From contig ASPC01000001.1 in assembly GCA_000405345.1 (NCBI GenBank), positions 1 to 60,434 on the forward strand: DNA of 60,434 nt. Direction: 5' to 3'. How positions within the stretch are numbered: position 1 is the first letter of the stretch; each line of letters opens with the position of its first letter. The notes below the pieces were generated by a model. It was not told the DNA's origin, searched no databases, and saw only the letters and a program-made list of their open reading frames with translations. A program made the position numbers and the translations under genes. Positions 1-49,754 of the stretch are shown here, piece after piece. The stretch is from Atribacteria bacterium SCGC AAA255-N14 (GTDB taxonomy: Bacteria > Atribacterota > JS1 > SB-45 > 34-128).

Positions 1-1170
1 ATCATTCAAAATATTATATTTTTTTTGTACCGCTTCTTTTGTGGTTAATTGGTATGGCAAAGAATAATGAGAACTAAAAGCATCTCCAAAAATTACATCA
101 TATTTTCCTTGTGTTTTGTTTAAAAATACCCTTCCGTCTTCATGATAAATAGTTAGCCTTGGACTTTCTTCTAATCTAAAGTATTTTTTTGCGAGCTCGG
201 TGACCCTGGGATCAATTTCAACTACATCAATGGTTGCCTCGGGATATTTATGTAAAAATTCTTTGGGATATGAATACCCTGCACCGCCAAGCATCAATGT
301 TTTTTTAAAATTCGGATTAAAATGTTTTGCCAAATGATAATATTTTGTGTATTCGTTAACTAATCCGTCACTATCTAAAAACATCGACGAATGATTCTCG
401 TTGTTGATTCCCATCATTTTAACTATCTTATTTGTCCTGTAATCAATACGATCATAAATCCAAATACGATTATAGGCCGTATCAACATCTATAAATCCGC
501 TTTTTGGGAACGTATAATTAAGTCCACTAATTACAAACCAACCAATAACAACAATAGCAAAAACAGACAGCTTGATCCAAATGCCTTTTTTTGCAGAAAG
601 TGCCAACGAAATAACAAATAATGTTATTGATAAAATAATCAATAATTTATTTGTGCCGAAGTGTGGAATTAAATAAAAACCGGCCAAAAATGTTCCAAAG
701 ATGCTTCCACTGGTCGATATTGCATAAAGAGTACCTACCGTTGAGGCCGAAGTATTTAAGTTCTTTATTTTTAATTTTACAGCATAAGGAGAAACCATTC
801 CCAAAAACACGCTGGCTGGCAAAAATAAAGTAAGAGATGCTAAAACCGAGGAAGTTCGGATATCTGTAAAATTATTTTGCAAAACAAAAAGCCAAAAGTC
901 TTTTATTATAACCATCAGTCCAATTGAAATTGCCGCTAAAAAAATAATCAGGGATAAACTTTTAAAACTGGATTTTTTATCTGCAATTTTTCCGCCTAAA
1001 TAGTAACCAAGACTAAGACTCCCCAAAATAATACCTATCAAGCTTGTCCAAACGAAAAGCGATGTTCCAAAATATGGTCCAAGCACTCTTGAACCAACAA
1101 GCTCAAACATCATAACGACCGCTCCACACACGAATACTACAATTTCCAAAAGATATTTACTAATTTTCAT
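1..1170 (-). CDS. Membrane-bound spermidine-synthase-like protein, partial (C-terminus outside window)
   Basis: The minus-strand frame is open from an ATG at 1170 to the window edge (390 codons). The first ~200 residues are hydrophobic, with several membrane segments and an MFS-like opening that contains a conserved VGSRVLGPYFG stretch. A soluble part follows with a glycine-rich LGGAGYSYP motif, an acidic VVEIDP strand end and a GDAF motif, as in the Rossmann methyltransferase fold of polyamine aminopropyltransferases. The fused membrane plus synthase layout is common in bacteria, and many members have no proven spermidine activity. The gene is cut by the window edge, so its C-terminus cannot be judged. 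The next gene on this strand, hgcB, ends about 160 bp upstream. Confidence 0.8.
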   Translation of the reverse strand, partial: MKISKYLLEIVVFVCGAVVMMFELVGSRVLGPYFGTSLFVWTSLIGIILGSLSLGYYLGGKIADKKSSFKSLSLIIFLAAISIGLMVIIKDFWLFVLQNNFTDIRTSSVLASLTLFLPASVFLGMVSPYAVKLKIKNLNTSASTVGTLYAISTSGSIFGTFLAGFYLIPHFGTNKLLIILSITLFVISLALSAKKGIWIKLSVFAIVVIGWFVISGLNYTFPKSGFIDVDTAYNRIWIYDRIDYRTNKIVKMMGINNENHSSMFLDSDGLVNEYTKYYHLAKHFNPNFKKTLMLGGAGYSYPKEFLHKYPEATIDVVEIDPRVTELAKKYFRLEESPRLTIYHEDGRVFLNKTQGKYDVIFGDAFSSHYSLPYQLTTKEAVQKKYNILND

Positions 1171-1331
1171 ATTTTTATCTTAGGCCTTCCTTTCGGTTTT
1201 AATTTAAAAACTCTCTTAAGCTGTCCTTCAAGTCTTTCTATAAAATCATAACAGGCTTATTTCTGTTTTTATCTCGGCAAAATGATATAATATCTTCAAA
1301 ATTTCAGTTATTGCTGGTTATGTGTTATTTC

Positions 1332-1631
1332 TCAACAACTTTCTCCACAGCTTTCTGTTTTTCGAAGTTTTAGGGCTGACAAAATCATTGCAGTGGCACA
1401 CCCAACTCCGCTTTCCACCGTGATTGCGTTCATAGAGCAGTTGAGCTGACATGCTCCACATTCCATACATGCCTCAAATTTTACAATTTTAGCTGTATCT
1501 TTACCCGGAGTGAATACACCGTGAGGGCAGACAGTACTGCACATACCACAATTGATACACAGTTCTGGTTTGTATTTCAGGGTATTAATTGCTTTCCTTT
1601 GGACCTTTTTCTTTAACAGTTTTGTTAACAT
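1332..1631 (-). CDS. hgcB: HgcB-like 2[4Fe-4S] ferredoxin (mercury methylation partner)
   Basis: A 99-residue dicluster ferredoxin. Cluster one uses C25, C28, C31 and C35; cluster two lies in CMECGAC (55-61) plus C65, the signature of HgcB. A further cysteine stands in GVGC (C78), and two cysteines close the protein (C95 and C99), matching the C-terminal cysteine pair that HgcB is thought to use for Hg(II) handling. Here the pair is spaced CGESC rather than adjacent. In the family HgcB reduces the corrinoid of HgcA. The gene starts 2 bp after hgcA, with a GAGGT ribosome site inside the end of hgcA, so the two are translationally coupled. Activity is inferred from sequence. Confidence 0.85.
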   Translation of the reverse strand: MLTKLLKKKVQRKAINTLKYKPELCINCGMCSTVCPHGVFTPGKDTAKIVKFEACMECGACQLNCSMNAITVESGVGCATAMILSALKLRKTESCGESC

Positions 1632-1633
1632 TT

Positions 1634-2641
1634 TTATGACCTCAATTTAATTAAATACATGACTATAGAAAAAATAATCCCCGAAATAAACATCGCTGTA
1701 AGAATAGGGATGTAGGTAAAAATTTCACGCCTAACGCCGGTTCTGGAAGTAAATGTGGTGGAGCCTGTGAAATTCAGAGCCAGAAAGGCTACTACGGGAG
1801 TCATGATCAGCATATTAATCAACGTTTCCCATGCAAGTGCCCAACCAAAGATGCCATTCATTAAATAGGCTGGTAAAAAATAAATCATCATTACTGCTAC
1901 ACCACCAAGCAATAATCCCTTTGTGATGAAATCACGGGTTGGGATCCATGGCAACAGAATGGGAAATAAGACAAGCCCGGTTATCAATATCCCCAAAATC
2001 TGTAATGATTTCCAAATTTCTCCGGTAAAAAGGCCTATCAAAATAGCGATTATCGCAATAAATAAAAAAGCCATGATTTCAACCGGGATTAGCTCCAAAC
2101 GATCTCTTAAATTGAATCTTACCCTGCGCATTTCAGCAGTGGCAGTTCGCGTTTTTAAGTAATTGGGAAGATCAGAGCTACGTACAGGGCCATACTCTAC
2201 TTTAAATCCCGAGCTTTTCCCTACCTCATGAGCACAAATCCCCGGGGCGCCCAGTTGTGGAAGTATAATCGAACGGTGATTGACAACTTTGGAAAGTTCA
2301 GTCATCTCGATTCGGTGCACTAACTCATCAGTATCGAAAGTCCCCTCTCCAGCAGCACACCAAACATTAATACCTCTGGTGTCTAACACCAGAATGTAAC
2401 CATCTATTTCTTTTAAAGAGGACCGCAATGCATCAAAGCTCAAAGTATAATTTGCACTTGCAAAGACCAGTGATTCTTGAGTGGGATTACCTAACTTGTA
2501 TAATCCTGGTTTGACCCGACGATGGTTCCTGCGCCATCCAAAACGCGCTAAAAAATGATCCCAACGATTTGCTAAGGTAATGATACTATCACAAACATAA
2601 AATTCTGTTTGTTTTTCCTCTATTTTCATTTGAATTTCCAT
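1634..2641 (-). CDS. hgcA: HgcA-like corrinoid protein (mercury methylation)
   Basis: 335 residues, the usual HgcA length. The N-terminal corrinoid-binding domain carries NVWCAAGEGTF (92-102); C95 is the expected cobalt ligand in the cap helix. LPQLGAPG and the VEYGPVRSSDLP segment also fit HgcA. From about residue 190 the protein has four or five hydrophobic helices, the HgcA membrane domain that is absent from the related acetyl-CoA synthase corrinoid subunit. In the family, HgcA passes a methyl group from a folate donor to Hg(II), with HgcB as reductant. The consensus cap motif ends in GK; here it is GE at residue 99, so activity needs testing. The start is not marked by a strong ribosome site; an internal ATG at codon 5 is an alternative. 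Confidence 0.88.
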   Translation of the reverse strand: MEIQMKIEEKQTEFYVCDSIITLANRWDHFLARFGWRRNHRRVKPGLYKLGNPTQESLVFASANYTLSFDALRSSLKEIDGYILVLDTRGINVWCAAGEGTFDTDELVHRIEMTELSKVVNHRSIILPQLGAPGICAHEVGKSSGFKVEYGPVRSSDLPNYLKTRTATAEMRRVRFNLRDRLELIPVEIMAFLFIAIIAILIGLFTGEIWKSLQILGILITGLVLFPILLPWIPTRDFITKGLLLGGVAVMMIYFLPAYLMNGIFGWALAWETLINMLIMTPVVAFLALNFTGSTTFTSRTGVRREIFTYIPILTAMFISGIIFSIVMYLIKLRS

Positions 2642-2719
2642 ATTCTTATATTTTAATTTATTTTCCTTTTTTCTTAGCTTTTATAAGTTATTTTTATTAG
2701 AATTCTAACCACTATTATT

Positions 2720-2998
2720 TTATTTTAGAATAATAGAATATTTCAGGAGGTTCAAGTGAGAACCTTTGGCGGTTTTTTCGGCAGGAATGTTATCATTGGC
2801 ATACTTGGCAGCCTCGGGAAGCAGGTGCTCTCCCGAATCCTCAATCACTTGACTCGCGGGATGGGTCGCCAACCAGGATATTTCAATTTCCGGATTTTGC
2901 CTGCGCAGTTCCGCCGCAATGGCTAAATCTCTTATGATGTGTCCCAAACCCAATGATCCGCTTAAATATAAATTCTTTTTCGTTCCATTCTCACTCAC
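2720..2998 (-). pseudogene. Glycosyltransferase stub (MGT/GT-B N-terminal fragment)
   Basis: A 92-codon frame starting with GTG. It shows the N-terminal nucleotide-sugar glycosyltransferase pattern: a first beta strand, then SLGLGHIIRDLAIAAELRR and a strand ending in WLATHPAS. Family members are about 350-420 residues, so only the first quarter remains, and the last residues look random. It sits between the hgc pair and a transposase relic, in line with rearrangement. Called a remnant rather than a functional small gene. Confidence 0.6.
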
Positions 2999-3020
2999 CC
3001 CTCCAAGGTCAATTTTATAT

Positions 3021-3045
3021 GTGACAAAGGACGGTTTTTTGTCAC
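3021..3045. repeat. GTGACAAA hairpin at the end of the transposase relic
   Basis: An inverted repeat with arms GTGACAAA and TTTGTCAC. It overlaps the stop codon of the adjacent transposase-like relic. Palindromes of this kind are typical ends or REP-like partners of Y1 transposases (inference). Confidence 0.4.
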
Positions 3046-3153
3046 ACTTTAATCCTTGATACTATACCTCGATTAATACCCAAAGCCTCAACTATCCGGT
3101 TAGGAAACTTTTCAGACTCTATCAGACCCCATAGGTTGTCCTCTAAAAGTTAC
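3042..3153 (-). pseudogene. C-terminal relic, probably of a Y1-type transposase
   Basis: A minus-strand frame of about 35 codons ends at 3042. It reads LWGLIESEKFP, then RIVEALGINRGIVSRIKV, a helix-turn-helix-like tail resembling the C-termini of REP-type Y1 transposases. No upstream part of the gene is recognisable. The hairpin at 3021-3045 overlaps its stop. Family assignment is tentative. Confidence 0.35.
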
Positions 3154-3689
3154 CGAATTATTGATCATTAACATGTCTCTATTTATTTAAGAAAAAATAA
3201 AAAAAAGCCAGAAAAACATACTTAGATATTGCATCTGAAACCTCCTCTTATACTTTTCTTATATTCCATTATAACGAAACCCTTTATCGAGTGCAATTTT
3301 AAATTTAAATCCACTCTAATTTGAATAGGAACACATCCTAATTTTTTTATTTCAGCTTTTTGCGAAATATGTGACCAATTCCTTTATTTTTTTTATAACC
3401 AGGATTTGCACTGATTTCCAATTATTTTTTTCTCTAGGAATATTCATTTTCTTTCATTTTTACGAATAATATGTGATAAAGCACTATCTCCTATCACATT
3501 CTTGTTCCATATCACTTGAAAAATTTTTTTTAATAGCGTAATATTAATTCCAAGTAATCTTTCATTGCTTCCTTAATAATATGGGCATCAGTCTTTCCTT
3601 AAGATTTTTGATAGCTCTTTTATGTTTTAAGGTATATTTGTTTATATAGTATTGAACAGACCATATTTAATAAATTTTAAGGGAATAAG
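3154..3689. other. AT-rich intergenic region
   Basis: No coding frame, RNA or ordered repeat was recognised in this gap. It should hold the promoter of the downstream MFS gene, but no convincing -35/-10 pair stands out. Confidence 0.5.
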
Positions 3690-4904
3690 ATGGAAATTTG
3701 GAAAAAAAATCTTTATGTCGTATTCTTTGCTGAAATGATTGTTGTTACCGGTATTACTTTTGTGATTCCCTTCCTACCTTTTTATGTAAGAGAATTGGGG
3801 ATTAGCAATATAGAACAGGCAGCCCGCTGGTCAGGCTGGCTGATGGGAGCTCCGGCGCTGGCGATGATTATCGTATCTCCTATCTGGGGTTCTCTGGCAG
3901 ATCGTGTGGGAAGAAAGCCAATGATAGAGCGAGCCATATTCGGAGGAGCAATCTCTGTATTTATGATGGCCCTGGCAACTAATGTCTATCAACTATTAAT
4001 TATACGCATCATACAGGGTGTTTTAACAGGCACGATTGCTGCTTGTACTGCCTTGGTTTCTGCAAGTTCACCTTCAAAAAAGATGGGATTTAGTTTGGGA
4101 TTATTACAGACCGGATTTTTTTTAGGTAACTTTTTAGGGCCTTTGTTAGGGGGTATTTCGGCTGATATTTTAGGTTTTCGAAATTCTTTTCGAATTACCG
4201 CTGCCCTACTCTTTATTGCTGGATGGCTAATCTTTTTCTTGGTAGAAGAAAATTTTACACCTGCAGCCAGGGAGAAACAGACCATTCCATTTAAAAAAAG
4301 AGTAGCCTTGTTTTTTAATAATGGACAATTATTCATCATGTTTTTTATACTGTTTTTAGTGCAGTTTTCGGTCAAGATTATTAGTCCTATTTTTCCTTTT
4401 TTTATGGAAACCATCGTATCAAATCCAAAAATCGTTTCCACCTTTACCGGATTAATGTTTGCCATAACCGGTTTGATGAGTGCTTTTTCTTCAATAAATG
4501 TAGGTAGGTTAATTGAAAAAAAACCGAGTAATTTCCTTTTAACCATCAGTCTTTTAGGAACAGGTCTTTTCTTTTTGTCTCATGCTTTTGTCACCAATAC
4601 TACTCAGTTAATCTTGTTGAGAGTTGGCTTGGGTCTTTTTTATGGAGCAATCATTCCTATTGCCAATACCATTATCGGTCTTTCAACTCCTTCCCATGAT
4701 CGAGGGAAAGTTTTTGGCTTTGCCAACAGTACTACTTACTTAGGTAATGTTTTAGGCCCTATTTCCGGTGGATTTATTATGACAACCTTTAGTTTGCCAG
4801 CTGTTTTCGTCTTTACCGGAGGTCTATTATTATTGGCAGGACTTGCCTTGCCCGTAGCAATTAAAAAAATTGAGAAAACTTCACTGGAAAAGGATAAAAA
4901 ATAA
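3690..4904 (+). CDS. MFS transporter, drug-efflux type
   Basis: 404 residues with about 12 hydrophobic segments in two halves. The loop between helices 2 and 3 has GSLADRVGRKP, the MFS motif A, and the first half has a FFLGNFLGPLLGG stretch like the motif C of drug/H+ antiporters. Such proteins export drugs or metabolites at the expense of the proton gradient. The ATG follows a weak AAGGGA ribosome site. It appears monocistronic; the next gene is convergent. The substrate cannot be predicted. Confidence 0.85.
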   Translation: MEIWKKNLYVVFFAEMIVVTGITFVIPFLPFYVRELGISNIEQAARWSGWLMGAPALAMIIVSPIWGSLADRVGRKPMIERAIFGGAISVFMMALATNVYQLLIIRIIQGVLTGTIAACTALVSASSPSKKMGFSLGLLQTGFFLGNFLGPLLGGISADILGFRNSFRITAALLFIAGWLIFFLVEENFTPAAREKQTIPFKKRVALFFNNGQLFIMFFILFLVQFSVKIISPIFPFFMETIVSNPKIVSTFTGLMFAITGLMSAFSSINVGRLIEKKPSNFLLTISLLGTGLFFLSHAFVTNTTQLILLRVGLGLFYGAIIPIANTIIGLSTPSHDRGKVFGFANSTTYLGNVLGPISGGFIMTTFSLPAVFVFTGGLLLLAGLALPVAIKKIEKTSLEKDKK

Positions 4905-4981
4905 CAACTAAAGAGATGGTTAATACCAAGATTTCGGCGCGCAATAGCCCTATTAGCCTCAGCACATTGTTAAGCAGATTA

Positions 4982-5524
4982 TCAAATTGGTAATCCCGGT
5001 ATGATGCGACCCTTAACCAGTTTCTTGTAATCCAGATAGGGCTGTCCCAGCGCGCTTTCCAGACTTTTCTCCTCAACCAGAACGAGACATAAAAAAGCGA
5101 TCCACCATATGGGAATCAGCGCGACGCCGATGATTGATCCGAACATCACCGCGAATCCGAGCGAGAAGAGAAGGTCAGTAAGGTAGATGGGATTCCTGAC
5201 AATGCCATAGATGCCATTTGTTTTGAGAACCATTTTACTGTCCGGAGCGGTCCGCCAATTAATGGACATGGCAGGAACGCCAAAAACGAAAGCGGCCGCG
5301 AGAAAGATTCCGCCAACGATCCAATTCCATATACCTATTTCAAAACGAGGCTGGGAGCAAAAAGGTAAGACAAGTACGATTCGAGACAAATCGCAAACCA
5401 TGATGGTTGCCACTCCGAACGCAGCGTTTTTTCCCATCTTTGTTCCGCTGACCAGGGCGGTGCCGACAAGCAGTCCGAACATGCCGACGAAGGCCCAGAA
5501 GAAAGGATCCGTGAGAATAAACAT
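4982..5524 (-). CDS. Isoprenylcysteine carboxyl methyltransferase-like membrane protein
   Basis: I chose the ATG at 5524 because an AGGAGGT site sits just before it; a longer frame upstream lacks one. The 180-residue product has four to five membrane helices and the C-terminal pattern GIYGIVRNPIYLTDLL, then EEKSLESALGQPYLDYKK, that marks the ICMT/PEMT-like family. These integral membrane enzymes methylate lipids or small molecules with S-adenosylmethionine; the bacterial substrate is usually unknown. The gene looks visibly richer in GC than its neighbours, which may mean recent transfer. Confidence 0.75.
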   Translation of the reverse strand: MFILTDPFFWAFVGMFGLLVGTALVSGTKMGKNAAFGVATIMVCDLSRIVLVLPFCSQPRFEIGIWNWIVGGIFLAAAFVFGVPAMSINWRTAPDSKMVLKTNGIYGIVRNPIYLTDLLFSLGFAVMFGSIIGVALIPIWWIAFLCLVLVEEKSLESALGQPYLDYKKLVKGRIIPGLPI

Positions 5525-5820
5525 AATATACCTCCTATGTAATATTCTCCTCATAACTAATGAATAGACTGCGAATTTGCTATCTATTATGCTATATTAC
5601 TTGTTTTGTAATATATCAATTTAATTATTCTACTTATTATTAAGTATTATGGCGCACAACGTGTATTATGGCGTTAGGTCTTGCAATATCACTTTTAAAC
5701 ATAAGACGCCAAGGAAATCAGTAAAGTCTTTCTCGGTAAGGAAGATCGCCTGCCTAGCATTTCCTCTGGAGGTGAGATGATAAACTGCTCCTTAACCAAT
5801 CTTCTCCAATCATCCAATGA

Positions 5821-7293
5821 TTAAGATTTTTCTTTTTTATGAAATACCTCTATGGCCCATTTGCCTGACAAGGCAGAAGGAGGTAACCCGCCACCCGGGA
5901 AAAGCCACTGTCCTGCCAGTATGAAATTAACAAGTCCTTTAATCAATGGATTTATTGTTTTATTCGTATTACTTTTTGTTGGCATAAAACCTTCATAGGC
6001 TGCCCGATATACGCCAGTGTATTTTACATCAGTTAAAGGAGTGGCTACATCTACAACCTCGATAAAATCTTTTATACCGGGATAAGCCTTTTCAAGCAGC
6101 GCTATCGCATCTTCTTTTATTTTTTCTTTTTCTTTTTCATATACATTATCTTTCAGATGTTCCCATATCTCATAAGGGCTTTGAAATTTAAGAACAATGG
6201 TCGTTTTCCCTTCAGGCGCCATATCCGGATCATAGCTGTAGTTTGATATTGAATAAGAATCAATTTCTGTAGCTCCTATTTTAGCCGGAACCAGATAGTT
6301 GTTCATCATCTGTTTTTCCTTGATCTCTTTTTTAATACCAAATGAAACCTGCACCAGGGGTTTGAAAAGTGGCCAATTTTCAAAGGCATTCTTTATATCT
6401 TCAGGAATATATTTACCATCAAGCATATCGTAAATAACCGTATGTAAATCACAGGCGGCGATAACATAATCAGACTTATGGATAGTGCCATCAGAAAGCT
6501 CCACACCAACAGCTTTTCCATCTTCGATGAGTATCTTCTTAACCCTTTTCCCAGTTGACAGCGTACCACCAAGTTTTTGGTATTTATTTAGAATCCGTAA
6601 TGCAAAATTTAGGGAACCACCTGCTGGATATCCGGCATTATTGTCTTTAAAGAGTGAAAGCATCATCAAAAAAGCAATCGCAGAAAAATTTTCGTCACTA
6701 TATATTTTCTCTAGAAAATGGTGCAAAAATTCATTTTTAAACCCCATTTCTTTTATAAACTGACCACAGCTTTTTTTACCATATTTAATCATGAGAATCA
6801 TGGCTGGCAACATCCTTAAAAAAATCTTTAACATGGGAAGAGTTCTTCTTAGCGGTTTAGGCTTCATAATTTCCTCTATATCACCGGAAAGAGAAAATTT
6901 AGCTATGATAGAAAACATCCTTGATATGGCTTCTTCATCTTCAGGAGAAATGCTTTTCAGATAGGCTTTCCATTTTTGCATATCTTTATACATTAAGAAT
7001 TCTTGACCTTCATTGTCTACATTTCTGATAAAGACTTCAGGGTCAATGATAGGTATATCTTCTGATAATGCCCCCAGTTGTTTCCACAGTGTATTCATAC
7101 TTCCTGAAGATGAACCCATAAGCCACCCAATGCAATAATCAAACATGTAACCCTTTCTCTTCCATGCTGTACACTGCCCTCCGGGAATAGTATGCATTTC
7201 AAATATTTCAGTTTCAAACCCATGCTTCTGACCAAAAACACCTGCTGAAAGTCCTGCTATCCCACCACCAATGATGATTATTTTACTTTTCAT
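5821..7293 (-). CDS. CrtI-like FAD-dependent oxidoreductase (phytoene desaturase/retinol saturase family)
   Basis: 490 residues. The N-terminus has the dinucleotide-binding motif IIGGGIAGLSAGVFGQKHG, then FEMHTIPGGQC, and the C-terminus ends with a second FAD motif around ILAGQWLFPGGGLPPSALSGK. This is the layout of carotenoid desaturases/isomerases and retinol saturases. No other carotenoid gene is nearby, so a carotenoid role is doubtful; uncharacterised anaerobic members are frequent. An AGAGGA ribosome site precedes the ATG. It stands alone between a gap and the Y1 transposon. Confidence 0.8.
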   Translation of the reverse strand: MKSKIIIIGGGIAGLSAGVFGQKHGFETEIFEMHTIPGGQCTAWKRKGYMFDYCIGWLMGSSSGSMNTLWKQLGALSEDIPIIDPEVFIRNVDNEGQEFLMYKDMQKWKAYLKSISPEDEEAISRMFSIIAKFSLSGDIEEIMKPKPLRRTLPMLKIFLRMLPAMILMIKYGKKSCGQFIKEMGFKNEFLHHFLEKIYSDENFSAIAFLMMLSLFKDNNAGYPAGGSLNFALRILNKYQKLGGTLSTGKRVKKILIEDGKAVGVELSDGTIHKSDYVIAACDLHTVIYDMLDGKYIPEDIKNAFENWPLFKPLVQVSFGIKKEIKEKQMMNNYLVPAKIGATEIDSYSISNYSYDPDMAPEGKTTIVLKFQSPYEIWEHLKDNVYEKEKEKIKEDAIALLEKAYPGIKDFIEVVDVATPLTDVKYTGVYRAAYEGFMPTKSNTNKTINPLIKGLVNFILAGQWLFPGGGLPPSALSGKWAIEVFHKKEKS

Positions 7294-7401
7294 TATTAGT
7301 CCTCTTTTCCTAAAATTATTTATCTTACTGGTTTGTGCTTATTATATCAAAAATCTGTTTATTTTATATTAATTTGAAAGTAAATAGTTATCTTGGAAAT
7401 A

Positions 7402-8437
7402 AAGGGGTCAGGTCTCAACATTTGACATTCATACTTCCTTTAAAGCGGTTATCACCCTTTGCATGACCTCTTTTATTTTATGATTAACTTCGGTTTTTTG
7501 TTCAAATCTTTTAGCAGTCTGGGAAACGGCTGAATAATCCATCTTAAAAAGTTCACCTATTTCAGATAAGGAAAGGGGGGTGAATCGCTTAATGAGATAG
7601 ATAGCCAAAGAGCGATTCAGGTTTCCTCTTTTTTTATCAAAGATTATCCTTCTTTCAATAGGTAATGCTTGAGTCATTTTGGTAATAATCGTATCCACAT
7701 CATATTTAGACAGAAAGCGGGTAGAAGGAATTTCCCTTCTTCGGCCTAGATGTTCTATCTTTTCTTTTACCCTTTCAATAAAGGTTTCACTGCCAAGAGC
7801 GATATGGTGATAGGATTTCTTAATGGGATCTTTCATCTTCTGATTTTCGCTAACATACTCTCGATATTTGCTCATTGCTTTCAAAGTATCATGGTCTATA
7901 GATTTTAGTACAAAAGAAGGATCAGTTATATCAGATTTTCTTAAATTTAAGTAATCCAAATAGCTGCTCCAGGAATATTCTTCTAATTGTTTTATGATTC
8001 CGGCACGTAAGGGATTGAGATGAATATAAGCTGAGAGGGTAAGGGCATAATGATCGGCTTCCACCAGAATAGATTTAAACCGGCCTTGAAAAAGAGGACC
8101 GATGATTTGATGTTTATTACGAAACCAATTGGCATAAGCACTGTTGAGATAATGGATACCTTGAGACAGGTTGGATTTATTCGTTTTAATAAAGAGATGA
8201 TAATGATTATCCATGAGGCAATAAGCGTAACAAATCATCGAATATTTTATGAGCATTTCTTTTAATCTTTTTAAAAATATCTCTTTATCCCGAGAGGAAT
8301 AAAATATATCCTCTCTCCGGTTGCCCCTGGCGGTAATATGATAAAAAGCATTTTCAAAAGATAATCGTAAAGGTCTAGTCATAATAAAATGTTAGCACTT
8401 AGATAGAGTTATGTCAAATGTTGAGACCTGACCCCTT
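7402..8437 (-). mobile_element. Complete Y1/REP-type transposon with perfect 27-bp inverted ends
   Basis: The left end 7402-7428 and right end 8411-8437 are exact inverted copies (27 of 27); the match stops at the next base on each side. The right end begins ATGTCAAATGTTGAGACC. Only the transposase lies between them, and its stop is at the inner edge of the left end. Sharp perfect ends around an intact gene suggest a recent insertion. Confidence 0.85.
7429..8382 (-). CDS. REP-associated (RAYT-like) Y1 transposase with C-terminal DnaA-like HTH
   Basis: 317 residues. The Y1 HUH domain opens with a PLRLSFENAFYHITARGNRR pattern, carries the metal-binding NHYHL motif (H60 and H62) and the likely catalytic tyrosine Y82 in SAYANWF. 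QGRFKSI and IHLNPLRAG are further family hallmarks. The C-terminal part (about 220-317) resembles the DnaA domain-IV helix-turn-helix often fused in this subgroup. The frame is intact and all key residues are present, so the element may be active. It makes single-strand cuts at the terminal repeats. Confidence 0.9.
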   Translation of the reverse strand: MTRPLRLSFENAFYHITARGNRREDIFYSSRDKEIFLKRLKEMLIKYSMICYAYCLMDNHYHLFIKTNKSNLSQGIHYLNSAYANWFRNKHQIIGPLFQGRFKSILVEADHYALTLSAYIHLNPLRAGIIKQLEEYSWSSYLDYLNLRKSDITDPSFVLKSIDHDTLKAMSKYREYVSENQKMKDPIKKSYHHIALGSETFIERVKEKIEHLGRRREIPSTRFLSKYDVDTIITKMTQALPIERRIIFDKKRGNLNRSLAIYLIKRFTPLSLSEIGELFKMDYSAVSQTAKRFEQKTEVNHKIKEVMQRVITALKEV

Positions 8438-8860
8438 GTTCTATGATTAAAAATGTAACCAGGGGTGAATCTACTACCGGTCATTACAGAAATAATATCT
8501 ATCAGGTTATTTTTCTTGAGGAGCTCACAAAGCATCCGGATCCGGGCAAAATAATAAATTTTGTTGGTAGCAATATGATACTTTCTTTGGTATCAAAACG
8601 ATACCCTAACAATACCAATCTTAACATTACCAATTTAACAGCAACAACAAAGAGAGAAAAAGATGCTGTTGCTGCTGTTAATTTTAAAAAATTAAAAGAG
8701 AAAGGAGAAGGAAAAATTGATTTTGCTTTCTTTTCTTTAGATAGATTTCCACTATCTGTTAATCTTACTTTTGTTAAGCTATTTGTGGTATAATAATTTG
8801 TGTGTGACTCCTCTTTTCTAAAATTTATTCTAGGTATTATACCCTATAAGGATGTAAATA
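8438..8860. other. Intergenic region between transposon and glycan operon
   Basis: An open frame of 116 codons (8443-8793, plus) begins 6 bp after the transposon end, without a ribosome site and with no recognisable domain. I treat it as chance or as the remains of the gene hit by the transposon. The last 70 bp hold the ribosome site (AAGGATG) of the next gene. Confidence 0.4.
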
Positions 8861-10093
8861 ATGTCAAATAGAAAACCAATAGTCTTAATATCAAGTTATT
8901 ATCCAAGGTTATGTGGTATTGCCACATTTTGTGAAGAAGCCAGAGAATTTATCCAGAAAGAAAATCCGGAAAGAGATGTTCTGGTAATAAGCCATACAGA
9001 CGGAACCGGCGAAGGGGTTTTCCCTTTAATAGATACTTCGAATCGTTTTTGGTGGAGGCCGGTAGCAAAAAAAATTAAAAAACTGTCTCCTTATGTAGTG
9101 CATATAGAACATGAATATGGCCTATATGAGCATATAGACAAAAGAGGTATTGGGGACAGAAACCAGGGATTTATAGAATTTTTAGGCTCTATTAATGAAT
9201 TCCCTATTGTGGTAGAGCCACATACAGTGCACGGTAGGTTAAAGGAATTTGAAGAAAATTTTATTTATCAACTATGTGAAGACGCTGATGTAGTTTTATT
9301 TAAGAGTGATTATCTAAAGTGGAGACTACACTGGACTTTTAGTCAAAGAGGATGGAAAATGCCCAAGAATATCATGATTGTCCCTCATGGAGCAAGGGCA
9401 GATAAAAATTGGAGTGAAAACGATATTCCAAAATTAAAAGAGGAGCTTGGTTTAAATAAAATTCCCTATCTAAGTAATAATTTAGTAGGATTGGTGGGTT
9501 GGATACAATCCAATAAAAGATGGGATATATTAACCTCTATATGGGAAGAAGCCCTCGAAGAAATAAGAATCAGAACCGGTGAAGACTGGGATTTACTTGC
9601 TGCAGGTGCTATGAGAGATAAAGCCCATCTAGCAGATTATAATCAATATAAAAAAAACTTAGAAATTTTGGAAAAGGAAGGGATGGCACATTATTATGAA
9701 TTTATTCCAAGGGGAGAAATTTACTATAAAGTAATGGCAGTTTGTAATTTTATCGTATTACCAACAGTGGATGAAACACAGTCGGGAACACTTGCCAGAA
9801 TTATTGCTTTAAATAAACCTTATATTACCACAGCTCCATTGGAAGGATTGACAGCTCAAACTCTGGAGAGCGAAGGCGGATTATTGTTTACCAATAAACA
9901 AATGCTAAAAGAAAAAGTTATTAGGTTGGCCTGTGATAAAGATTTGAGAAAAGAGCTCTCCGAAAATCTCAAAAAATATTTAACAGAAGTTGTATCCTGG
10001 GAGATAACTGCCAAAAAATATAAAAAAGCATATAGACTTGCAAGGCTTAAAAAAAATACAGGGGAAGACATAGGTTTACCCCCGGAATTTTAG
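8861..10093 (+). CDS. Glycosyltransferase family 4
   Basis: 410 residues, GT-B fold. The N-terminal half has SSYYPRLCGIATFCEEA, and HIEHEYGLYE near residue 80; the C-terminal half has LVGLVGWIQSNKRWD and a VDETQSGTLARIIAL stretch in the donor-binding region. It probably transfers a nucleotide-activated sugar in the cytoplasm. It shares the CGIAT-F/Y opening with the following gene, suggesting duplicated enzymes that act in sequence on one glycan. A GH130 phosphorylase downstream makes mannose a reasonable guess for the sugar (inference). It is the first gene of a four-gene plus-strand operon. Confidence 0.85.
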   Translation: MSNRKPIVLISSYYPRLCGIATFCEEAREFIQKENPERDVLVISHTDGTGEGVFPLIDTSNRFWWRPVAKKIKKLSPYVVHIEHEYGLYEHIDKRGIGDRNQGFIEFLGSINEFPIVVEPHTVHGRLKEFEENFIYQLCEDADVVLFKSDYLKWRLHWTFSQRGWKMPKNIMIVPHGARADKNWSENDIPKLKEELGLNKIPYLSNNLVGLVGWIQSNKRWDILTSIWEEALEEIRIRTGEDWDLLAAGAMRDKAHLADYNQYKKNLEILEKEGMAHYYEFIPRGEIYYKVMAVCNFIVLPTVDETQSGTLARIIALNKPYITTAPLEGLTAQTLESEGGLLFTNKQMLKEKVIRLACDKDLRKELSENLKKYLTEVVSWEITAKKYKKAYRLARLKKNTGEDIGLPPEF

Positions 10094-30281: not shown

Positions 30282-30488
30282 TGTACCTCACTTTTTCCTT
30301 AAGTGAGGTGGAGGCGCGAGCAATAATTAGTACTGGTGATAAGATGAGCATCTTTGATTCGCCAGAAAAGGTATTCTCGCCGAAGCGTAAAGATAACAGC
30401 CCTAATCCTTACGCTGGGTTTATGGTTAAAAGCCATAAGACTGTCATCAGAATCTATACCCCGGTTTCTGGTGGAGCGCTATCTCATC
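30282..30488 (+). ncRNA. Lysine riboswitch (L box)
   Basis: The conserved core is present in order: GAGGTGGAGGCGCGA at 30305-30319, AGTA, GAAAAGGTATT, TCGCCGAAGCG, GCTGGGTTTATGG, AAGACTGTCATC and GGAGCGCTATCTC ending at 30485. GAGGTGG (30305-30311) can pair with CTATCTC (30479-30485) to close helix P1. Just upstream, CCTCACTT and AAGTGAGG (30286-30308) form a hairpin that overlaps the 5' P1 strand. The element leads into lysA, so excess lysine should stop lysine synthesis. Confidence 0.92.
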
Positions 30489-30533
30489 TGATGAGAGAAA
30501 TGGGAGTAAATTTAATTGTTAGATTAATTTCAG

Positions 30534-48977: not shown

Positions 48978-49754
48978 CTATATTTCTATTACTATTCTAA
49001 GAGCTTTCAACGAAGAATCTTTAAGCATTTCAAATCCTTTGGTTAAATCTTTTAAAGGTAATTTGTGAGTAATAATAGTTCCGATATCTATTTTACCTTT
49101 CTTTGCTAAATCTATGGAAGTAGGCCAATCAATTGGTTGCATGGCTCTGCTACCAACTATTTTTAGGTCCTTATAATACAGTGAATATGAATTAAAATTT
49201 TCTATCCCTTGAGAGTTGATTCCAAAGGCAAGGATAGTCCCACCAGGGCGAACTAACTCAGTAGCCATATTCATTGTTACTGATTTTCCAACACATTCTA
49301 TAACGTAATCTACCCCTCTATCTTTAGTAAGTTCATAAACTCTTTGAACCACATCTTCATTAAATACATGATCAGCTCCATTCTCAGAAAGGGTAACGTA
49401 TTCTGCATAAGTCCCATCGAATTCACGGCCAAATAAACCTCCGTTTTTACAAATATTTGTATCACCCCTCATGCAATCAAGACAAATTCCGCAATATGAA
49501 GTGGGATTCATTACAACTTTGTCTCCCACTTTTAAATTTTTTACTCCCTCTCCCAATTCTACAATTTCTCCTGCTGATTCATGGCCTAAAATTCTGGGAT
49601 AATCAACTTTTGGTCTGCCTTCGAAAATTGCGATATCTGTACCACATATTGCAGTTGCTTTTACTCTTACTAAAATTTCTCCATACTTTGGGATAGGCTG
49701 CTGAACATCTTCAATAGATAGATTTTTTGGTCCTCTTAATACTGCTGCTTTCAT
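48978..49754 (-). pseudogene. Zinc alcohol dehydrogenase with in-frame deletion of the nucleotide-binding segment
   Basis: 258 residues instead of about 340-350. The catalytic zinc ligands C37 and H58-E59 and the structural zinc cysteines C88, C91, C94 and C102 are present. At E124 the sequence jumps to NGADHVFNEDVVQRV, which in full-length relatives lies after the Rossmann GxGxxG region. About 85 residues are missing with the frame kept, so NAD(P) binding should be lost. The C-terminal part (YVIECVGKSVT, ILAFGI) is intact. Either a deletion allele or an assembly collapse. Confidence 0.75.

What the first reader, a model, noticed from the sequence alone, without database searches (positions are those of the whole stretch)
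1332..2641. hgcA-hgcB pair with Glu instead of Lys in the cap-helix motif
HgcA has NVWCAAGE with Cys95, HgcB has CMECGAC and two terminal cysteines, and they are coupled. The known consensus is N(V/I)WCA(A/G)GK; a Glu at the last position and the CGESC spacing in HgcB are departures that may affect methyl transfer. The pair would make this organism a candidate mercury methylator. It lies next to transposase and glycosyltransferase relics, so it may be acquired.
Basis: partly seen in the sequence, partly recalled or inferred. Interest (0 to 1): 0.72.

Follow-up and report, generated by a model that had tools for sequence, protein, structure and literature searches.

The report
Mercury-methylation gene pair, charge-swapped motif
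An uncultured bacterium, possibly of the Atribacteria group, carries an intact pair of mercury-methylation genes in which one lysine of the signature motif is a glutamate, a rare but recurring natural variant that surveys relying on the strict motif would miss.

Summary
ORFs 1634-2641(-) and 1332-1631(-), 2 nt apart, are HgcA and HgcB: both pass NCBI's curated cut-offs, and the HgcA model matches the published HgcAB model and CFeSP. The motif is NVWCAAGE with Glu99. A 97%-identical protein on another database contig has the same Glu. It is not private: of 298 aligned sequences 283 have Lys, 13 Glu and 2, both fused paralogues, Gly; a tree built without that column needs 8 Lys/Glu changes, four of them clearly nested. 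Two other genomes have Glu beside a complete HgcB. One Glu-type protein (P0313) is truncated. The HgcB 'departures' are normal: CMECGAC in 120 of 120 listed relatives, the CGESC end in 7 of 120. The 'transposase relic' is an intact-looking element 4.8 kb away that does not bracket hgcAB in the window. Best reading: an ordinary, probably working HgcAB with a tolerated Lys-to-Glu switch. New is that Glu-type HgcA recurs while published screens require ...GK. Whether Glu changes the enzyme is untested.

The parts
1634..2641 (-). hgcA, corrinoid protein (335 aa): cobalamin-binding domain about 20-170, five predicted membrane helices 185-334
2345..2368 (-). cap motif NVWCAAGE (residues 92-99)
   Evidence: translation; alignment; coordinates counted from the ORF start at 2641
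2345..2347 (-). codon 99, GAG (Glu) where 280 of 292 aligned HgcA-type sequences have Lys; one A/G transition from AAG
2333..2335 (-). codon 103, Asp where 287 of 292 have Gly
1332..1631 (-). hgcB, dicluster ferredoxin (99 aa) with Cys78 and C-terminal Cys95/Cys99
   Evidence: NF040864 106.6 bits, cut-off 99; cysteine positions; 95-99% identical relatives P0121-P0126
1632..1633 (-). 2-nt gap between hgcA stop and hgcB start; a GAGGT Shine-Dalgarno-like stretch at the hgcA 3' end suggests translational coupling
   Evidence: sequence; coupling is inference

Best explanation
This is a genuine hgcAB mercury-methylation pair of an anaerobic bacterium, tentatively Candidatus Atribacteria. HgcB's iron-sulphur clusters would reduce the cobalamin on HgcA to Co(I); S-adenosylmethionine would methylate it; HgcB's Cys78 and C-terminal Cys95/Cys99 would bring in Hg(II) and carry off methylmercury; HgcA Cys95 would sit under the cobalt. 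These steps are transferred from studies of the ND132 proteins (Pseudodesulfovibrio mercurii, formerly Desulfovibrio desulfuricans); none was tested on this pair. Glu99 is a natural, recurrent alternative to Lys, one A-to-G transition away, in a stretch just after the cobalt-facing Cys. The most likely reading is that it is tolerated and the enzyme still works, perhaps with altered electrostatics at the HgcB or substrate face.
For: Both proteins pass curated equivalog cut-offs. Residues invariant in all 292 aligned sequences around the cap (G90, N92, V93, W94, C95, A96, G98, F102, E106) are kept. The window departs at 2 of 80 columns that are at least 95% conserved, a count reached by 36% of sequences over 300 aa, and at 5 of 112 columns at least 90% conserved (median 3; reached by 28%), so there is no clear sign of decay. 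Glu occurs in P0012, 97.3% identical over 255 residues, while the next relative P0001 has Lys; and again in P0014, 96% identical to Lys proteins P0011 and P0015. Parsimony needs 8 Lys/Glu changes on a tree of 298 sequences built with that column masked. Glu-type HgcA in L050 and L083 have HgcB neighbours ending in CC that pass the HgcB cut-off. Of the 13 Glu-type proteins in the tree, 12 including the window pass the HgcA cut-off. The solved CFeSP chain 4djd_C has Asp, and 2h9a_A Ala, at the aligned position. SAM as donor: passages of PMC11588087. HgcB cysteine roles: passages of PMC7305189.
Against: I found no assay of a Glu-type HgcA. Lys is very strongly kept: all 35 HgcA-like hits in three genome samples searched with any residue allowed at the site were Lys. 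One Glu-type protein, P0313, stops at 157 aa with an unrelated tail and no membrane domain and fails the HgcA cut-off (202.1 against 275), although short Lys-type proteins exist too (P0243, P0246). The window also has Asp at the next conserved Gly (103), so its cap region carries two rare residues. A charge reversal next to the cofactor and the HgcB interface could lower activity. Some Glu branches are placed with weak support.
Confidence: 0.7

Rival explanations
1. Glu99 is a damaging allele: the pair is losing function and persists briefly in single lineages.
For: Glu is rare and mostly near tips of the tree; the Glu-type protein P0313 is truncated before the membrane domain; the window carries a second rare residue, Asp103, at a 98%-Gly column.
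Against: Both window ORFs are intact; HgcB is 99% identical to P0121 and P0122; constrained columns are otherwise kept; Glu is shared by diverged full-length proteins (P0265 and P0323, 78% identical; P0271 and P0329, 79%) and occurs beside complete HgcB.
Confidence: 0.15
2. Glu99 marks a change of specificity (different methyl acceptor, metal or partner) in an otherwise HgcAB-like pair.
For: The site shows only the two opposite charges in the 296 unfused sequences of the tree (6 of them were fetched with a pattern that allows only Lys or Glu). ND132 Gly96, beside this site, is modelled to contact HgcB Arg58, which by cysteine spacing is Leu63 in the window HgcB (inference).
Against: No residue elsewhere in HgcA tracks Glu beyond what relatedness could give (uncorrected tests); the window HgcB keeps all the cysteines named for ND132; Glu-type sequences do not form one clade.
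Confidence: 0.12
3. Glu99 is a sequencing or assembly error.
For: It differs from Lys by one base.
Against: P0012, on a different contig and 97.3% identical over 255 residues, has the same Glu.
Confidence: 0.03

Closest known systems
HgcA/HgcB of ND132 (computed model 9a0b; described in PMC7305189 and PMC11588087, passages seen)
   Same: Domain order, cap Cys, five membrane helices, dicluster HgcB with extra Cys and two C-terminal Cys
   Different: Glu99 for Lys97 (offset by cap Cys; the ND132 Lys is recalled from the family motif, not read in a call); Leu63 for HgcB Arg58; HgcB ends CGESC, while ND132 has adjacent Cys94/Cys95
HgcA clade P0001-P0018 and HgcB clade P0121-P0140 (metagenomic; P0135 named Candidatus Atribacteria)
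   Same: 77-98% identity for HgcA, 70-99% for HgcB; same HgcB end in 7 members
   Different: Glu only in P0012 and P0014 of these 18 HgcA; the other 16 have Lys
CFeSP large (gamma) subunit
   Same: Cobalamin-binding fold, 124-127 residues at about 2 A
   Different: No cap Cys (Thr aligned), no membrane domain (recalled), PRK04165 far below cut-off
HgcAB-like fused proteins (e.g. L090, L091: 384 and 404 bits against 285)
   Same: NVWCAAG cap motif, membrane and ferredoxin parts
   Different: One chain; Gly at the Lys/Glu site in these two; the window has two genes and misses the NF043039 cut-off

Membership tests
HgcA (NF040863) | Curated equivalog score | tested here: met
   402.2 bits against 275
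HgcA (NF040863) | Cobalt-facing Cys within NVWCAAG | tested here: met
   N92-G98 with Cys95
HgcA (NF040863) | C-terminal five-helix membrane domain | tested here: met
   hydropathy segments from 184 to 331; five predicted helical spans after residue 185; alignment to 9a0b_A over 304 residues
HgcA (NF040863) | Adjacent hgcB | tested here: met
   2-nt gap, same strand
HgcA (NF040863) | Makes methylmercury | not testable with these tools
   needs an assay
HgcA as filtered in some surveys by the strict motif N(V/I)WCA(A/G)GK | Lys at the last motif position | tested here: not met
   Glu. 12 of 13 Glu-type sequences pass the curated HgcA model, so I treat Lys as typical, not defining
HgcB (NF040864) | Curated score, two 4Fe-4S motifs, extra Cys, C-terminal Cys | tested here: met
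   106.6 bits against 99; Cys 25,28,31,35,55,58,61,65,78,95,99
CFeSP gamma subunit (PRK04165) | Curated equivalog score | tested here: not met
   71.1 bits against 306
HgcAB-like fusion (NF043039) | Curated score and a single fused chain | tested here: not met
   213.4 and 45.9 bits against 285; two ORFs

The most novel reading that the evidence does not exclude
A convergent Lys-to-Glu charge reversal at the end of the HgcA cap motif defines a naturally recurring class of active methylators. It alters how the cap loop meets HgcB or the substrate, so these enzymes would have shifted kinetics, and motif-filtered surveys have been discarding them, including from Atribacteria-like bacteria.
Probability: 0.25. 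Interest if true: 0.6.

Novelty: new variant of a known kind. Interest (0 to 1): 0.36.

Why it matters
hgcA is a marker gene by which mercury methylators are counted. Two papers state that sequences lacking the ...GK motif were removed (PMC7438021; PMC10349881, 'to eliminate paralogs'), and a third checked hits by hand using NVWCA(A/G/S)GK (PMC7536318); only passages were read. Real HgcA with Glu would fail such filters. A site that flips between Lys and Glu is also a testable handle on an unexplained conserved position beside the cofactor. The practical effect is probably modest: 1 of 80 loci, 3 of 120 proteins in a search whose query itself has Glu, and 0 of 35 HgcA-like hits in three genome samples.

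Tried and rejected
Acquired gene: no direct evidence. GC of 39.7% in 1501-3000 against roughly 28-42% in the other blocks is not an outlier; no repeats bracket hgcAB in 1000-9000. The left flank of hgcB is only 1331 bp, so a boundary beyond the window is not excluded.

Compensating residue for Glu: uncorrected Fisher tests over HgcA columns (13 Glu, 283 Lys) gave only modest associations (W34, L/I189, I244, F138, E44, I/V91) that relatedness can explain. With three Glu-type HgcB partners in hand (window, L050, L083), HgcB compensation could not be tested.

First AlphaFold2 model (22 sequences) was poor, pLDDT 56.6, and was not used; the second (92 sequences) reached 89.1, but its block 91-100 averages 62, so the placement of Glu99 is uncertain.

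Open-site pattern hits that were not Lys: G540 and G619 are fused HgcAB-like proteins with Gly; G480 is a chance match in a 38-aa frame. The 35 Lys hits were counted from the matched DNA only and not verified as HgcA one by one; three (G031, G033, G035) are the centres, already in the 80-locus set. The Chloroflexi-type sample was almost empty: 2 of 400 genomes matched, both Lys, both already in hand. Ten genomes reached by handle: 9 matches, all Lys, all already in hand.

Tree: the count of 8 is for the resolved FastTree. Collapsing weak nodes into hard polytomies gave 8 to 10, but that can only raise the count, so it is no test; other resolutions of weak nodes could give fewer. P0298 and L050 are placed together but apart.

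Literature: no paper holding both HgcA and NVWCAAGE; 'HgcA' with 'K97' gave one unrelated GCAP1 paper; a five-term lysine-variant search listed 15 of 44 papers, none of the 15 on mercury; 'Atribacterota' with hgcA and mercury gave none, though 'Atribacteria' gave 5. Only open-licence PMC text was searched, no supplements. The HgcA mutagenesis paper (AEM 2015, recalled) is not held, so whether this Lys was ever mutated is unknown to me.

Taxonomy: no whole genome is held; no tRNA was found and the only Rfam match is a riboswitch. 'Atribacteria' rests on one named HgcB relative, 77% identical over 95% of the query, and on papers placing hgcAB in that group. The nearest HgcA hit with an organism name is Anaerolineae, at 60% (P0074).

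Plasmid search with the transposase element: no match.

Full report
Observation. HgcA scores 402.2 bits against the NCBI equivalog cut-off of 275 and HgcB 106.6 against 99; the alternatives (CFeSP gamma subunit, HgcAB-like fusion) fall below their cut-offs. Pfam finds CdhD in residues 41-158 of HgcA and 4Fe-4S domains in HgcB. The cap motif is NVWCAAGE and the codon is GAG.

Is Glu99 real and how common is it? Of the 120 best HgcA hits listed (of 6967), 116 read NVWCAAGK, 3 NVWCAAGE and 1 NVWCASGK. A second search, scored on residues 66-111 of the Glu-bearing relative P0012 and so biased towards Glu, raised the set to 211 proteins: 200 AAGK, 10 AAGE, 1 ASGK (120 listed of 4658). With the window this gives 280 Lys and 12 Glu of 292. 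Searches of whole genomes with the site left open gave 38 matches in 299 genomes: 35 Lys, 2 Gly in fused HgcAB-like proteins and 1 chance match. In a group of 24 genomes around L050's, 7 matched a Lys-or-Glu pattern, 5 Lys and 2 Glu. So Glu is rare, patchy and natural.

Independent origins. On a FastTree of 298 sequences with the site masked, parsimony needs 8 Lys/Glu changes with Lys at the root. The clearest cases are Glu inside Lys groups: window plus P0012 next to P0001 (local support 0.88), P0014 with P0011 and P0015 (0.84), the P0265 group with P0304 (1.0), and L083 with L085 and L086 (0.995). Others rest on weaker nodes (0.21 for the P0310 group, 0.65 for P0066, 0.83 for P0298 with L050, a pairing not seen). 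Four origins are well nested; eight is the count on this tree. Of the 13 Glu-type proteins, 12 including the window pass the HgcA cut-off. The thirteenth, P0313, is cut short at 157 aa with an unrelated tail and scores 202.1 against 275; its relatives P0265 and P0323 pass. L050 and L083 have HgcB neighbours that pass the HgcB cut-off (100.6 and 113.1 against 99) and end in CC.

Constraint. The window HgcA departs from consensus at 2 of 80 columns at least 95% conserved (Glu99, Asp103), a count reached by 36% of sequences over 300 aa, and at 5 of 112 columns at least 90% conserved (median 3, reached by 28%). HgcB is 99% identical to its two nearest relatives. Nothing points clearly to a decaying gene, although dN/dS could not be computed because the DNA of the close relatives is not available here.

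What the residue may do. By the cap Cys (93 in ND132, 95 here), Glu99 corresponds to position 97 of ND132. In the published model the neighbouring Gly96 contacts HgcB Arg58 (section read); by cysteine spacing that Arg is Leu63 in the window HgcB (inference). In solved CFeSP sequences the aligned residue is Asp (4djd_C) or Ala (2h9a_A), so an acidic residue there is compatible with that fold. The essential chemistry is placed elsewhere: the cap Cys and the HgcB cysteines (passages of PMC7305189) and SAM as methyl donor (passages of PMC11588087, which also report a base-on, Cys-off Co(II) state). I therefore expect activity to survive, with a possible change in electrostatics.

HgcB. CMECGAC is in 120 of 120 listed relatives (of 1327 hits); the exact CGESC end is in 7 of 120, all among the closest nine. 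The tail is variable across HgcB (passages of PMC7305189).

Surroundings. Towards the window start lies a spermidine-synthase-like membrane protein (1-1170, minus). Upstream of hgcA are a 92-aa frame with a weak PseG-type match (2720-2998), an MFS transporter (3690-4904), a small methyltransferase-like ORF (4982-5554, below cut-off), a phytoene-desaturase-like oxidoreductase (5821-7293) and a transposase of the Y1/REP-associated type with a DnaA-like C-terminal domain (7429-8382). The transposase has perfect 27-nt inverted repeats at 7402-7428 and 8411-8437 and no further copy in the window, so it looks like a self-contained element rather than a vehicle for hgcAB.

Organism. No genome is held for the window. 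The nearest HgcB relative with an organism name is from a Candidatus Atribacteria MAG (P0135, 77%). [quoted passage not shown] The assignment is tentative.

Verdict. A member of a known system carrying a motif variant that I found in no searched paper and that published motif filters would remove (by-hand check). Interest lies in the repeated charge switch and in its effect on surveys, not in a new mechanism.

Noticed in passing
window 7402-8437: Intact-looking REP-associated (Y1) transposase with a DnaA-like C-terminal domain between perfect 27-nt inverted repeats; no match in the plasmid collection.
   Followed up: partly
window 1450-1469: The hgcB reverse-primer site matches the 96-fold degenerate ORNL-HgcAB-uni-R primer with 0 mismatches but the newer uni-32R primer with 2, so this lineage may amplify less well with the new primer.
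   Followed up: partly
L090:1308-2933 and L091:887-2572 (G540, G619): Fused HgcAB-like proteins (384 and 404 bits against 285) with NVWCAAGG, i.e. Gly at the Lys/Glu site, in the phylum-level group around an Aminicenantes MAG.
   Followed up: partly
P0313 (database protein, contig up to 374955 bases): Glu-type HgcA cut short at 157 aa with an unrelated tail and no membrane domain; a possibly broken copy.
   Followed up: partly
window 30301-30489: Lysine riboswitch (111 bits) upstream of a lysA / aspartate kinase / dapA cluster.
   Followed up: no
window 48978-49754: 258-aa ORF of the zinc alcohol dehydrogenase type whose best stretches cover only about the first 125 residues; possibly a truncated or frameshifted gene.
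   Followed up: no
window 2333-2335: Asp103 in HgcA at a column that is Gly in 287 of 292; the near relative P0001 has Ser and P0012 Gly, so this position varies within the clade.
   Followed up: partly
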